Below, piece by piece: positions 48,480-62,700 of a stretch of DNA of 64,000 nucleotides. The notes beneath the pieces are model-generated. The model saw nothing but the letters and a program-made list of their open reading frames with translations. It did no database searches and was not told the DNA's origin. Origin of the DNA: Solirubrobacterales bacterium (GTDB lineage: Bacteria; Actinomycetota; Thermoleophilia; Solirubrobacterales; 70-9); NCBI GenBank assembly GCA_035573435.1, contig DATMZR010000021.1, positions 1 through 64,000 of the forward strand, written 5' to 3'. The position numbers were made by a program, and so were the translations under genes. The number at the start of each line of letters is the position of its first letter. Position 1 is the stretch's first letter.

Positions 48480-49514
48480 CTAGCTCGGGAACAGGCTGGT
48501 CTGTGACCCTCGCGACCGCGCGGGGCCGCCGCCCGTTTCGGCTTTGGACTCGCGAGCCAGGTCCCGCAGCCCGCGGCCGCCGCTGGCGCCGCGCCCCCGT
48601 CGCGCCATGCCGGAGAGCCGCTCCCGTTCCGGGCTCGGTAGGTACGCGCCGCGCGCGTACAGCTCCTCGTAACGCGGAACGAGATCGGGCCGGTAGGACC
48701 GCAGCCAGTCGAACCAGATCTCACGCACCTCGCCCCGCAGGTGCAACCCCACCCCGCCGATCGTCCGGGCGCCCCCTTCACCAGCCAGCTCGAGGATCTC
48801 CTCCACCTGCTCGGGAGCGTCGTTGATGCCCGGCATCAGGGGGGCGATCAGGACGCCGGTCGGGATGCCCGCCCGATTCAGCTCGCCCACGGCCTCCAGT
48901 CGCTTTCGTGGGTGGGGCGTGTGGGGCTCGGTCTCGCGCCACGCCTTCTCGTCGAGGGTGGGCACCGAGAGGTTGGCGGTGAACTCGGTCACCCGAACGA
49001 GCTGCTTCATCAGCTCGATGTCGCGCAGGAGCAGCGGCGACTTGGTCAGCACCGAGCAGGGATTTGCGTAGTCGCGCATCGCCTCCCAGATCCCCTCCAT
49101 CAGCCGGTAGCGCCCCTCGACCCACTGGTACGGATCGGTGTTGGTCCCCAGCGCCACGTGGTCGCCACGCCAGGAGGGACGTGCCAGCTCGGCGCGCACC
49201 ACTTCGGGCAAATTTACCTTGACGACGATCTCGCGCTCGAAGTCCTCCCGGGCGTTGAAGTCGAGATAGGTGTGCGTGGGGCGAGCGAAGCAATAAACAC
49301 AGGCATGCGCACATCCCCGGTACGGGTTGATCGTGTACCGGAAGGGCATTCGCGAGCGCTCGGGCACCTTGTTGATCCCGGAGCGCGCGCGGATCTCGTA
49401 GAAGCGGGTCCCAACGGCCTCGGGCGCATCGAAGGTGCGGACCCGCGCCGGCTCCTTGAAACCGGGCAGCGCAGCCTCACGCTCGTGCTCGACGGTCAGG
49501 CTCTGCCAGCGCAC
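48480..49514 (-). CDS. Rv2578c-family radical SAM protein
   Basis: A 344-residue radical SAM protein. The cluster motif is Cys68-x3-Cys72-x2-Cys75 (GCAHACVYCFARPTH), followed by FEREIVVKVN, VALGTNTDPYQWVEGRYRL, VLTKSPLLLRDIELM and VGLHLRGEVREIWFDWL. It matches the Mycobacterium Rv2578c layout from PFRYTINPYRGC onward; the family resembles SPL-like photoproduct-repair proteins. GTG 49514 is chosen because it aligns with the start of the mycobacterial homologue and lies just behind a LexA-type box; the longer GTG 49535 would put the box inside the gene. The final 45 residues are disordered. Confidence 0.82.
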   Translation of the reverse strand: MRWQSLTVEHEREAALPGFKEPARVRTFDAPEAVGTRFYEIRARSGINKVPERSRMPFRYTINPYRGCAHACVYCFARPTHTYLDFNAREDFEREIVVKVNLPEVVRAELARPSWRGDHVALGTNTDPYQWVEGRYRLMEGIWEAMRDYANPCSVLTKSPLLLRDIELMKQLVRVTEFTANLSVPTLDEKAWRETEPHTPHPRKRLEAVGELNRAGIPTGVLIAPLMPGINDAPEQVEEILELAGEGGARTIGGVGLHLRGEVREIWFDWLRSYRPDLVPRYEELYARGAYLPSPERERLSGMARRGRGASGGRGLRDLARESKAETGGGPARSRGSQTSLFPS

Positions 49515-49527
49515 GAACACATGTTCG
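49514..49527. promoter_or_regulatory. LexA (SOS) box
   Basis: CGAACACATGTTCG, a perfect CGAAC-N4-GTTCG match, overlaps the start codon of the radical SAM gene. The central bases ACAT are the same as in the box at 62751-62762 upstream of lexA. Confidence 0.8.
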
Positions 49528-49560
49528 CACTCCACCCGGACGTCCTCGGGCGCGGACGAG

Positions 49561-50604
49561 TCAGGAGCCGTCCTGGCTCAGCTCGGCGGGCACCAGCTCC
49601 AGGCTCAGCTCGTCTCCCGAGCGCCAGACCCAGGTGCGAACCGGGCGCTCGATCAGCTCCGCGGTCATCATCTGCTGGAGGTCCGAGGCGCTCGACACCG
49701 CCCTGCCGTCGAGCTCCAGGATCAGGTCGCCGACCCGGAGGCCGCCGCGTTCGGCTGGGCTGCCGGGCACGACCTCGACCACCTCCACGCCGGTGCGGTC
49801 GCCCCAGCGATCCCGGGCGCGGGGCGGAAGCGGGCGCGGCCCCCCGGCGACGCCGAGGAAGCCGCGGCGTACGCGACCCTCGGTCATCAAGGCACCGATG
49901 ATGTTGCGGGTCGCCGCATTGATCGGCACAGCCAGGCCGAGCCCGAAGCCTGCGATGGCCGTGTTGATGCCCACCACCTCTCCCCGGCCGTTGGCGAGCG
50001 CGCCTCCGGAGCTACCCGGGTTGAGGGCGGCGTCGGTTTGGATCACGTTCTCGATGATTCGCACTGCGCGACGGCCGGCGGGAGCAGGCAGGGCGCGGCC
50101 GAGCGCCGACACGACCCCGGCCGTGACCGAGCCCTCGAGGCCGTGAGGGTTCCCGATGGCCACCACCAGCTGGCCGACGCGCAGCTCGTCCGCGTCGCCA
50201 AGCGCCGCCGGGGTCAGCCCGCCGTCCTCGGCCCGCACGATGGCCAGGTCAGAGAGAGGGTCGCGGCCAAGCACCGAGAAGCGGAGCTCGCGCCCGTCGG
50301 TGAACGCTGCCCGGCCACCGCTGGCCGGCCCGGCGACGACGTGCGCCGAGGTCAGGATGAACCCGTCGTGCGTGAGGGCGACGCCGCTGCCGGCGCCCAC
50401 CGGCAACGACCCTCGACGCGTACGCCGCTGAACGCGCAGGCTGGCGACCGCCGGTGCGAGGCTCTCCGCCACCCCGACCACAGCCCGGGAGTAGGCGTCG
50501 AGCGCCGCGGAGTCTCCACTCGGCTCGCCCTGCGGGCGCGCCGGGAGTGACGACTCGGCCGGGGCCGAGGCGCCGGCGAGGCGCGATTGGTCCACCCCGG
50601 CCAT
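49561..50604 (-). CDS. HtrA/DegP-like serine protease with PDZ domain
   Basis: A 347-residue S1C protease. The catalytic triad is complete: His88 in ILTSAHVV, Asp119 in DPLSDLAIV and Ser199 in NPGSSGGALAN. A PDZ domain follows with FLGVAGG and VVPGSPAERGGLRVGDLILELDGRAV. No signal peptide or TM is evident; the N-terminus is hydrophilic, so it may work in the cytoplasm or need another start. It begins in the stop of the paralogue (TGATG) and is therefore coupled to it. Confidence 0.82.
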   Translation of the reverse strand: MAGVDQSRLAGASAPAESSLPARPQGEPSGDSAALDAYSRAVVGVAESLAPAVASLRVQRRTRRGSLPVGAGSGVALTHDGFILTSAHVVAGPASGGRAAFTDGRELRFSVLGRDPLSDLAIVRAEDGGLTPAALGDADELRVGQLVVAIGNPHGLEGSVTAGVVSALGRALPAPAGRRAVRIIENVIQTDAALNPGSSGGALANGRGEVVGINTAIAGFGLGLAVPINAATRNIIGALMTEGRVRRGFLGVAGGPRPLPPRARDRWGDRTGVEVVEVVPGSPAERGGLRVGDLILELDGRAVSSASDLQQMMTAELIERPVRTWVWRSGDELSLELVPAELSQDGS

Positions 50605-51506
50605 CAGACGCTGACCCCCGCCAGCTCCACCTCGACCTGGCGTTCCTCGGTGCCGCGAACCACGGTGAGCGTCAGCCCGCCGTTTGTCATGGCCGCGTCC
50701 AGAGCTCGGTGCAGGGCGTCGATCCCGTCCAAGGGCTCGCCGCCAGCGGCGACGATCAGGTCACCGGCCGCGATCCCCGCCTGAGCCGCCGCGCTCGATT
50801 CCTCGACGCCTCGAACGAGCAGGCCATCTTGCTCCGGCAGCCCAACGGCCCGCCGCATCCGGCGCGACACATGCGCCGGCGCCACCGCGACGCCCAGGAA
50901 AGGCCCCTCGGCCTGCTCGCCGCGCCCCAGGCGCTCCGCCGTCTCGCGCAGTCCCGACGCGGGACCGAGCGCGACGATCAGCCCGCCTTCCAGCCGTAGC
51001 GCGTTGACCCCGAGCAGGCGGCCCTCGGCGTCGAGCAGAGGTCCGCCGGCCGAGCCGCGAGGCAGCGTCGCCGTGTGCTCGATCGCGCCGGATATCCGTC
51101 TGCCGCGAGGACCGCGAAAGCCACGGTCCGCCGCCGCCACGAAGCCGAGGCTGGCCCGGAGGCCACGCCCGCCGGGATTGGCCAGCGCCACCACAGCGGT
51201 GCCGATCTCGACCTCCGCGTCGGCCGGCGCCCACGCCAGTGGCTCGATCTCGCCCGTATCCGCCTCCAGCACCGCCACACCCAGGTCGCGGTCGATGCCT
51301 ACCGGTTCTGCGACCACGCTCCGCTCCTCGGCGAAGGTCAGCGTGACCCCCTCGGAACGGACGTGATGCGCCGCCGTCAGCACCCGGCCGGGCCCGATCA
51401 CCGTCCCCGACCCGAACCGCCAGCCGCGCCCGATTCCGACCACGGCGTTGCCCCGGGTGTCGGCGACGGTTGCGACCTGCGACTGGATCTCATCGAGCAC
51501 GCTCAA
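50604..51506 (-). CDS. HtrA-like protein lacking the catalytic serine
   Basis: A 300-residue paralogue of the next gene: trypsin-like domain with TAAHHV (His47) and RDLGVAVL (Asp74), and PDZ domain (FLGVAVAPAHV; GIAAGDLIVAAGGEPLDG). At the position of the nucleophile the sequence is PRGSAGGPL, so the residue before GGP is Ala rather than the usual Ser (as in NPGNSGGPL), predicting an inactive protease. It may regulate the active partner. Start TTG 51506 has AGGAGG at 51513-51518; GTG 51548 lacks a site. Its promoter region contains a palindromic operator shared with the HxlR gene. Confidence 0.72.
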   Translation of the reverse strand: MSVLDEIQSQVATVADTRGNAVVGIGRGWRFGSGTVIGPGRVLTAAHHVRSEGVTLTFAEERSVVAEPVGIDRDLGVAVLEADTGEIEPLAWAPADAEVEIGTAVVALANPGGRGLRASLGFVAAADRGFRGPRGRRISGAIEHTATLPRGSAGGPLLDAEGRLLGVNALRLEGGLIVALGPASGLRETAERLGRGEQAEGPFLGVAVAPAHVSRRMRRAVGLPEQDGLLVRGVEESSAAAQAGIAAGDLIVAAGGEPLDGIDALHRALDAAMTNGGLTLTVVRGTEERQVEVELAGVSV

Positions 51507-51516
51507 ATTCAGCCTC

Positions 51517-51538
51517 CTAGTTACTTGCAACTTGCTAG
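51517..51538. promoter_or_regulatory. Palindromic operator between HtrA-like and HxlR genes
   Basis: An imperfect inverted repeat with CTAG ends and a central TTGCAA; it also contains two ACTTGC direct repeats seven bases apart. Located next to the HtrA-like gene's ribosome site, about 20 bases from the HxlR -10 element. Confidence 0.5.
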
Positions 51539-51556
51539 TGACGTCCACAAACAGAG

Positions 51557-62097: not shown

Positions 62098-62700
62098 TCA
62101 GATGCTCCTGTAGACGCCGACGACCCGGCCCAGGACCCTCGCGTCACGGGTCCGGATCGGCTTGTAGGCCTTGTTCGCGGGCTGGAGCCGGACCCGGTCC
62201 TTCTCGCGGTAGAAGCGCTTCACGGTCGCCTCGTCCTCGAGCAGGGCCACGACGATCTCACCGTTGTCCGCATCGTCGGCCGCGGTCACCACCACGTAGT
62301 CCCCTTCGAGGATGCCGGCGTCCCTCATCGAATCGCCCCTCACCCGGAGGATGTAGTCGCCCTGCTCCCCTCCGATCACGGAAGGAAGCTGCACGTACTC
62401 CTCGATGTTCTCCTCGGCGAGGACCGGCTCGCCGGCGGCGACGTGACCGACCACGGGGAGCCCCGGCCCGCGCACGGCGCGCTTCGCCCGATCGACCAGG
62501 AGCTCGATCGCCCGCGGCTTCGTCGGGTCGCGCCGCAGCAACCCCACCTTCTCCAGGTTGGCGAGGTGGGCGTGTACGGTCGAGGACGAATGCAGGCCCA
62601 CGGCCTTGCCGATCTCCCGCACGGTGGGCGGGTAGCCGTACCGGGAGGCGTAGCGACGGATGAAGTCGAAGATCTCCTTCTGGCGCTTGGTCAGATCCAC
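62098..62700 (-). CDS. lexA: LexA repressor
   Basis: A 200-residue LexA. N-terminal winged helix (LTKRQKEIFDFIRRYASRYGYPPTVREIGKAVGLHSSSTVHAHLANLEKVGLL) binds SOS boxes. C-terminal protease domain: cleavage site Ala89-Gly90 (HVAAGEP), Ser124 in RGDSMRDAGI and Lys161 in VKRF. RecA filament triggers self-cleavage, which lifts repression of DNA-repair genes. GTG 62700 has AGAGGGGG upstream. An SOS box about 50 bases upstream gives autoregulation. Confidence 0.95.
   Translation of the reverse strand: MDLTKRQKEIFDFIRRYASRYGYPPTVREIGKAVGLHSSSTVHAHLANLEKVGLLRRDPTKPRAIELLVDRAKRAVRGPGLPVVGHVAAGEPVLAEENIEEYVQLPSVIGGEQGDYILRVRGDSMRDAGILEGDYVVVTAADDADNGEIVVALLEDEATVKRFYREKDRVRLQPANKAYKPIRTRDARVLGRVVGVYRSI

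What the first reader, a model, noticed from the sequence alone, without database searches (positions are those of the whole stretch)
49514..49527. Perfect SOS box at an Rv2578c-type radical SAM gene
CGAACACATGTTCG lies on the start codon. The mycobacterial homologue is, as I recall, also in the LexA regulon. This supports a DNA-damage role for the radical SAM family, which resembles photoproduct lyases, and conservation of the link over a large distance.
Basis: partly seen in the sequence, partly recalled or inferred. Interest (0 to 1): 0.6.

Follow-up and report, generated by a model that had tools for sequence, protein, structure and literature searches.

The report
SOS-induced radical-SAM enzyme with clamp tag
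A DNA-damage switch sits on the start of a radical-chemistry enzyme gene, the same switch recurs at this gene across a bacterial phylum, and the enzyme ends in a short tag that looks made for clipping onto the DNA-replication clamp, which suggests it repairs damaged DNA at replication forks.

Summary
The 14-mer is real, exactly placed and not chance. On the minus strand it reads CGAACATGTGTTCG; its last base is the first base of the GTG start of a radical-SAM gene (48480-49514). lexA lies in the same window with a 13/14-identical box. In the genome, all seven boxes with an alternating core sit at starts: lexA, dinB, an imuB-like gene, this gene, three endonuclease-like genes.

The LexA link is already published for Streptomyces, Gram-positive core regulons and other phyla. 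Added here is depth: in a phylum-wide draw, 87 of 97 Rv2578c-type genes have a perfect box at the start (93 of 97 with at most one mismatch); same-sized windows elsewhere, 0-1 of 62-120. In this order the box seems to double as the -10 of a leaderless promoter; elsewhere it mostly abuts the -10.

The enzyme is probably not a spore photoproduct lyase: no conserved fourth cysteine, Phe for the catalytic Tyr. Not found in my paper searches: a conserved C-terminal pentapeptide (QLSLL/QPTLF/QTSLF type; 95 of 117 tails, shuffled mean 1.2) matching the bacterial sliding-clamp motif, also in proteobacterial relatives. Best reading: a LexA-controlled, clamp-tethered radical-SAM DNA-lesion enzyme, substrate unknown.

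The parts
48480..49514 (-). Rv2578c-like radical SAM protein gene, 344 aa, GTG start at 49514-49512, stop TAG at 48482-48480
   Evidence: NCBIfam best hit NF038135 380.5 bits, below its cut-off of 430; Pfam PF04055 54.8 bits, cut-off 29.5; start placed by relatives
49514..49527 (-). LexA/SOS box CGAACATGTGTTCG (core GAACATGTGTTC 49526-49515)
   Evidence: exact match; conserved in relatives
49521..49526 (-). inferred -10 hexamer GAACAT, six bases from the GTG (leaderless spacing), forming the left half of the SOS box
   Evidence: sixth base T in 34 of 34 boxes of this order against 46 of 81 elsewhere; inference, no start-site mapping
49537..49541 (-). GTCCG element 12 nt after which the hexamer begins (GTC-N12-GAACAT); PafBC-like spacing, identity uncertain
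   Evidence: GTC at this place in 21 of 34 boxes of the order, 2 of 81 elsewhere; published PafBC motif TGTCGG-N10-TANNNT (PMC8151990 passage)
49290..49313 (-). CX3CX2C [4Fe-4S] cluster motif (C68, C72, C75) followed by invariant F76
   Evidence: invariant in 29 of 29 aligned sequences
48489..48503 (-). C-terminal QTSLF, predicted sliding-clamp-binding motif
   Evidence: conserved pentapeptide at the C-terminus of the family; matches QL(S/D)LF (PMC9690074 passage)
62098..62700 (-). lexA
   Evidence: PF01726 86.9 bits and PF00717 116.4 bits
62750..62763 (-). SOS box of lexA, 13 of 14 bases identical to the radical SAM box

Best explanation
The gene is an SOS gene. LexA, made from the same window, binds the palindrome that covers the -10 region and start codon of a leaderless promoter and blocks transcription; after DNA damage RecA-driven LexA cleavage frees it. 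The product is a radical SAM enzyme of the Rv2578c/PA0069 branch whose core barrel is followed by a variable, presumably flexible tail ending in a sliding-clamp-binding pentapeptide. I infer that it is carried to replication forks or gaps by the beta clamp, as ImuB and DinB are, and there uses a 5'-deoxyadenosyl radical to reverse or remodel a DNA lesion. Shown by sequence: box, its conservation, promoter layout, cluster motif, tail motif. Published for relatives: LexA binding and induction. Inferred: clamp binding, DNA as substrate, leaderless transcription. Unknown: the lesion and the chemistry.
For: Box exact and at the start. lexA in the window with a near-identical box. Same layout at dinB in this genome: GAACATGTGTTC directly followed by GTG. 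Perfect box in 97 of 119 homologue loci; 91 of 113 in the 360-bp start window against 0-1 of 62-120 in six other windows and 0-1 for the reversed pattern. In the phylum draw 87 of 97 Rv2578c-type loci perfect, 93 of 97 with at most one mismatch, comparable with or above recA (21 of 30) and lexA (20 of 30). In the order, 71 of 72 examined gene-bearing genomes have a perfect box 0-4 nt before the start. Published LexA ChIP and 20-fold induction in S. venezuelae; radical SAM in the Gram-positive core SOS regulon and bound by LexA in Balneolaeota; splB in other phyla. Clamp motif: Q..[LIMF][FLIVWAMD] within 3 residues of the end in 95 of 117 tails, shuffled mean 1.2, maximum 6; at or near the end in 9 of 10 named relatives on replicons from Actinomycetota, Proteobacteria and Gemmatimonadota, partial in the tenth, and in 0 of 4 more distant radical SAM proteins; in none of the other radical SAM proteins found in this genome.
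Against: No binding, induction or clamp assay in this organism. Four Rv2578c-type loci lack a box within one mismatch (L051, L070, L124, L144), and eleven divergent homologues have none, yet ten of these eleven still carry Q..[LIM] in the last 15 residues, so tag and box are separable. L147, a 34 percent paralogue without the motif, was left out of the 117. Clamp motifs are short and degenerate. GAACAT matches a -10 only at three of six positions, and TANNNT is absent after the box. No neighbouring repair gene: the gene stands alone beside htrA-like genes. The structure prediction was too poor to use.
Confidence: 0.66

Rival explanations
1. It is a true spore photoproduct lyase-type enzyme that repairs the spore photoproduct or a close UV dimer with the same Cys/Tyr radical relay.
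For: Weak profile match to solved spore photoproduct lyases, E 0.09 at best, over a 39-residue stretch and the cluster region. Published annotation of relatives as SplB.
Against: 17.5 bits against a cut-off of 400 for the lyase model. Only three cysteines are invariant in 29 sequences and F76 is invariant where the lyase has Tyr98/99; C141 and Y99 are the published relay (PMC3742179, passages). A published comparison also finds the similarity weak (17.6 percent identity; PMC12924846 passage).
Confidence: 0.08
2. It is SOS-induced but acts on something other than DNA (tRNA, a protein or a small molecule), and the conserved hydrophobic C-terminus is a protease degron that keeps an SOS protein short-lived.
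For: Radical SAM enzymes have many substrates; hydrophobic C-terminal tails can be degrons (general knowledge, no call).
Against: The motif is led by a conserved Gln (82 of 117 at position -5), and in seven loci it lies well inside the tail with further residues after it (L068, L077, L097, L122, L127, L128, L130), which a C-terminal degron would not allow. It matches the published clamp consensus.
Confidence: 0.17
3. The palindrome is kept because it is coding sequence (codons GAA CAT GTG TTC upstream of the annotated start), not as an operator.
For: In this window the frame is open upstream to a GTG at 49535.
Against: Other families keep the box at many other distances and frames; in 18 of 19 further genomes of the order the start is 1-4 nt or so after the box, in different frames; the middle residue codon varies freely while GAAC and GTTC do not.
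Confidence: 0.02
4. The promoter is mainly switched by PafBC, with LexA secondary.
For: GTC-N12-GAACAT in 21 of 34 boxes of the order against 2 of 81 elsewhere, the spacing of the published PafBC motif; a PafC-like HTH hit in the genome at 31 bits, just under the cut-off of 32.
Against: The bases after GTC differ from the published motif (CCG rather than GG/AG), and the PafC hit is below its cut-off. LexA and PafBC control need not exclude each other.
Confidence: 0.07

Closest known systems
vnz_31145 radical SAM protein, Streptomyces venezuelae LexA regulon (PMC9380542; section 7 with Table 1 read in full)
   Same: Radical SAM gene under LexA, 20-fold mitomycin induction, authors suggest repair of thymine cross-links
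   Different: Different genus and a less regular box at -61; no clamp motif discussed in the parts read. That vnz_31145 is the direct orthologue was not tested.
Gram-positive core SOS regulon radical SAM (PMC7739468) and splB/COG1533 in alpha- and beta-Proteobacteria, Bacteroidetes, Balneolaeota (PMC3323433, PMC8565304, PMC7739468; passages)
   Same: Same functional link: a COG1533-type radical SAM gene controlled by LexA
   Different: Other operators; those papers treat it as a photolyase; the passages seen do not mention a clamp motif
Spore photoproduct lyase SplB (PMC3742179 passages; PDB 4FHC, 4K9R)
   Same: Radical SAM fold class and CX3CX2C cluster motif
   Different: No conserved fourth Cys, Phe for Tyr99, no significant overall sequence match
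Mycobacterial ImuB (PMC10421592 passages)
   Same: SOS-regulated and recruited to the clamp through a Q-L-x-L-aromatic motif (QLPLWG)
   Different: ImuB is a polymerase-like hub with an internal motif; here an enzyme with a C-terminal tag, binding not yet shown
Archaeal NreB-SplB gene pair (PMC4929162 passages)
   Same: SplB-like enzyme linked to a protein with a possible sliding-clamp motif
   Different: There the clamp motif is on the neighbour and less clear-cut; here it is on the radical SAM protein itself

Membership tests
Radical SAM superfamily (PF04055) | Pfam gathering score and CX3CX2C | tested here: met
   54.8 bits, cut-off 29.5; C68, C72, C75 invariant in 29 sequences
Rv2578c family radical SAM protein (NF038135) | equivalog cut-off 430 bits | tested here: not met
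   380.5 bits, best family hit but below cut-off; so called Rv2578c-like, not filed as a member
PA0069 family radical SAM protein (NF033668) | cut-off 360 bits | tested here: not met
   253.6 bits
Spore photoproduct lyase (TIGR04070) | equivalog cut-off 400 bits | tested here: not met
   17.5 bits
Spore photoproduct lyase (TIGR04070) | conserved fourth cysteine (C141 in B. subtilis) | tested here: not met
   only C68, C72, C75 invariant in 29 sequences; no structure-based alignment was possible
Spore photoproduct lyase (TIGR04070) | Tyr after the third cluster cysteine (Y99 in B. subtilis) | tested here: not met
   F76 invariant in 29 sequences, aligned by HMMER to that position
Actinobacterial LexA (SOS) regulon | GAACN4GTTC operator at the promoter, shared with lexA | tested here: met
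Actinobacterial LexA (SOS) regulon | LexA binding and damage induction in this organism | not testable with these tools
   published for a Streptomyces radical SAM gene only
Sliding-clamp client proteins | QL(S/D)LF-type pentapeptide, typically C-terminal | tested here: met
   QTSLF two residues from the end; family counts; consensus
Sliding-clamp client proteins | measured DnaN binding | not testable with these tools
   no assay
PafBC-dependent promoters | TGTC(G/A)G-N10-TANNNT | tested here: inconclusive
   GTCCG-N10-GAACAT: spacing kept, bases differ; motif

The most novel reading that the evidence does not exclude
Across Actinomycetota and Proteobacteria, the LexA-controlled Rv2578c/PA0069-type radical SAM protein is a client of the beta sliding clamp: its C-terminal pentapeptide docks it on DNA at stalled forks, where it performs a new radical-based lesion repair distinct from spore photoproduct repair. 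In Solirubrobacterales the operator has moved by about one half-site to become the -10 element of a leaderless promoter, whereas in most other lineages it abuts the -10, so the control has been kept while the site has turned over.
Probability: 0.6. Interest if true: 0.78.

Novelty: new variant of a known kind. Interest (0 to 1): 0.6.

Why it matters
SOS regulons of several phyla contain a 'SplB-like' radical SAM gene whose substrate has never been established; a 2026 paper calls any repair link of the Rv2578c family speculative (PMC12924846 passage). A conserved operator in most of the phylum makes a damage role hard to doubt, and a clamp tag would turn the question into simple tests: does it bind DnaN, does it form damage foci, does loss of five residues equal loss of the gene. 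It would also add direct radical chemistry to the list of activities delivered by the clamp.

Tried and rejected
Viral contigs held no relative. Sequence search of solved structures with the single protein gave nothing useful; with the family profile only weak spore-photoproduct-lyase hits. Chance and coding constraint as explanations of the box were tested and rejected. A shared mobile origin of the two HNH promoters was sought in the order: only this genome has the pattern (1 of 151). Conserved gene neighbourhood was looked at only in this window, where the gene stands alone.

Rows dropped: of the matches listed, I examined 110 loci (30 supplied, 80 fetched), leaving out the remaining listed matches, mostly fragments or E above about 1e-36. 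In one search, L025 and L093 lacked the N-terminus; L028 was counted as a miss although its N-terminal half was not located. In one search, L028, L129 and L147 were left out by me (not located, broken frame, paralogue without the motif), and L041 has no stop in its contig. In one search, f18, f26, L136 and L147 were set apart as not Rv2578c-type, by family and identity rather than by a model score. The order check left 13 of 85 gene-bearing genomes unexamined, mostly intein-split or truncated.

Paper claims: the clamp motif in this family was searched for (open-licence library only, no preprints); nothing was found. Rv2578c itself appears in 2 held papers, and none together with LexA. Papers were seen as passages, except section 7 of PMC9380542.

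Full report
Observation. It belongs to a minus-strand gene; read in the gene's direction it is CGAACATGTGTTCG and its last G is the first base of the GTG start (49514-49512). A second in-frame GTG lies upstream, but relatives fix the start after the box: all 16 close loci read GAACATNNGTTC followed at once by GTG, and 18 of 19 further genomes of the order have a perfect box with the start 1-4 nt after it. The box is the only full match in the window. In the genome there are 24 GAACN4GTTC sites against 12 reversed-pattern controls.

The regulon. lexA lies in the window (62098-62700, minus) and its box matches in 13 of 14 bases. The seven genomic sites with an alternating core all sit at starts: lexA, this gene, a dinB-type polymerase (IMS 167 bits), an imuB-like protein (IMS 49.8 bits), a PD-(D/E)XK fragment and two HNH-like genes. 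In dinB and the PD-(D/E)XK gene the GTG also follows the box at once. recA of this genome has no such box directly upstream; the nearest lies 240 bp away inside the neighbouring gene.

Conservation. In a draw of 396 genomes of the phylum, 140 have a homologue at E below 1e-20. I read 110 loci from that draw and 11 from another collection. Of 119 with a readable N-terminal region, 97 have a perfect box within -300 to +60 of the expected start, 6 have one mismatch, 16 have two or three. Control windows of the same size have 0-1 hits of 62-120 loci, and the reversed pattern none in the start window. Within the draw, Rv2578c-type loci have a perfect box in 87 of 97 and at most one mismatch in 93 of 97, over 23 of 28 families; the 11 divergent homologues have none. 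For comparison recA has a perfect box in 21 of 30 and lexA in 20 of 30 (these are the best-scoring loci of 60 genomes each and the window was -400 to +60, so the comparison is rough). The family f18 that lacks the box at this gene (0 of 8) has weak LexA hits (45-50 bits in the four genomes seen) and no box at recA in the three seen, so gene and regulator appear to have parted together. In the order, 85 of 151 genomes have the gene; 53 of these have the strict box-GTG-CGN-TGG pattern (54 genomes in all, reversed control 0 of 151), and 18 of 19 of the rest that I read have a perfect box: 71 of 72 examined.

Promoter layout. In most other lineages a TANNNT hexamer follows the box within 0-4 nt (63 of 81), and 15 of 81 have TTGAC just upstream of the box; in this order TANNNT never follows (0 of 34). 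Instead the sixth base of the box is always T (34 of 34, against 46 of 81), so that GAAC(A/G)T sits six to ten bases before the start codon, the place of a -10 hexamer in a leaderless gene. The imuB-like gene of this genome has TTGACA 17 bases before GAACGT, which supports that reading. GTC lies 12 bases before the hexamer in 21 of 34 (2 of 81 elsewhere), the spacing of the published PafBC motif (PMC8151990 passage). Leaderless transcription and PafBC control are inferences.

The protein. It is a radical SAM protein, closest to the Rv2578c model but below its cut-off (380.5 of 430). Twenty-nine aligned sequences keep CX3CX2C and the Phe after it, and no fourth cysteine. Spore photoproduct lyase needs C141 and Y99 (PMC3742179 passages); HMMER aligns Y98/99 to F76. 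So the lyase chemistry is not expected.

The tail. After a variable linker the proteins end in QLTLL, QLSLI, QPTLF, QTSLF and the like. Of 117 tails, 95 have Q..[LIMF][FLIVWAMD] within three residues of the end, 78 end exactly in Q..[LIM][FLIVMW]; 500 shuffles give means of 1.2 and 0.1. With the looser Q..[LIM] in the last 15 residues, Rv2578c-type loci score 84 of 95 against a shuffled mean of 6.3; seven of the eleven misses carry the motif farther inside and four end in LF without the Gln. Ten of eleven divergent homologues have it as well. On named replicons, nine of ten relatives from Actinomycetota, alpha- and gamma-Proteobacteria and Gemmatimonadota have it (Gemmatirosa has QLSLGI), four more distant radical SAM proteins do not. 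The Aeromonas, Azospirillum, Sphingomonas and Paracoccus genes also have sequences resembling their own groups' LexA boxes (CTGT-N8-ACAG, GTTC-N7-GTTC; motifs recalled) 10-30 bases before a start; Pseudorhodobacter, Legionella and Gemmatirosa do not, and Sinorhizobium is unclear. None of the other radical SAM proteins of this genome has the motif. A review gives QL(S/D)LF, at the C-terminus, as the bacterial clamp motif (PMC9690074 passage); mycobacterial ImuB uses QLPLWG (PMC10421592 passage).

What is known. LexA control of such a gene is published: S. venezuelae vnz_31145, the Gram-positive core regulon and Balneolaeota with gel shifts, Bacteroidetes, alpha- and beta-Proteobacteria, and a 'DNA repair photolyase' in M. 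tuberculosis. SplB-like enzymes have been linked to ImuB-C operons. What I did not find in print is the clamp motif. In archaea a SplB-like gene neighbours a protein with a possible clamp motif, an independent hint in the same direction.

Verdict.

Noticed in passing
L006 3091-3102, L008 2998-3009, L009 3050-3061 (own genome): Three small endonuclease-like genes (one PD-(D/E)XK fragment, two HNH-like) have SOS boxes at their starts and lie close to tRNA-Ala, tRNA-Gln and tRNA-Lys genes; possibly SOS-triggered mobile genes. M. tuberculosis also has HNH genes among RecA-dependent mitomycin-induced genes.
   Followed up: partly
L008 and L009: The two HNH promoters share CCATGGGAACATNTGTTCGATG, found in no other of 151 genomes of the order.
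   Followed up: yes
radical SAM gene, around codons 68-81 in relatives: 21 of 121 homologue loci are split by 0.5-2.5 kb at the CX3CX2C region, as expected for inteins.
   Followed up: partly
L016 1933-1944 (own genome, recA region): recA of this genome has no SOS box directly upstream; the nearest is 240 bp away inside the neighbouring gene.
   Followed up: no
G000:C12:292864-293142 (L228): A PafC-like HTH in a 695-aa open frame, 31 bits with cut-off 32, perhaps a fused PafBC.
   Followed up: no
family f18 genomes (L137-L143, L145): Divergent homologues keep the clamp-like tail but not the SOS box, and their LexA hits are weak.
   Followed up: partly
phage records KX607102.1, NC_007409.1: Archaeal two-tailed Acidianus viruses encode a distant radical SAM relative (25.7 percent identity).
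   Followed up: no
window 49561-50604 and 50604-51548, minus strand: Two consecutive trypsin/HtrA-like protease genes with PDZ-like ends lie just upstream of the radical SAM gene (by eye).
   Followed up: no
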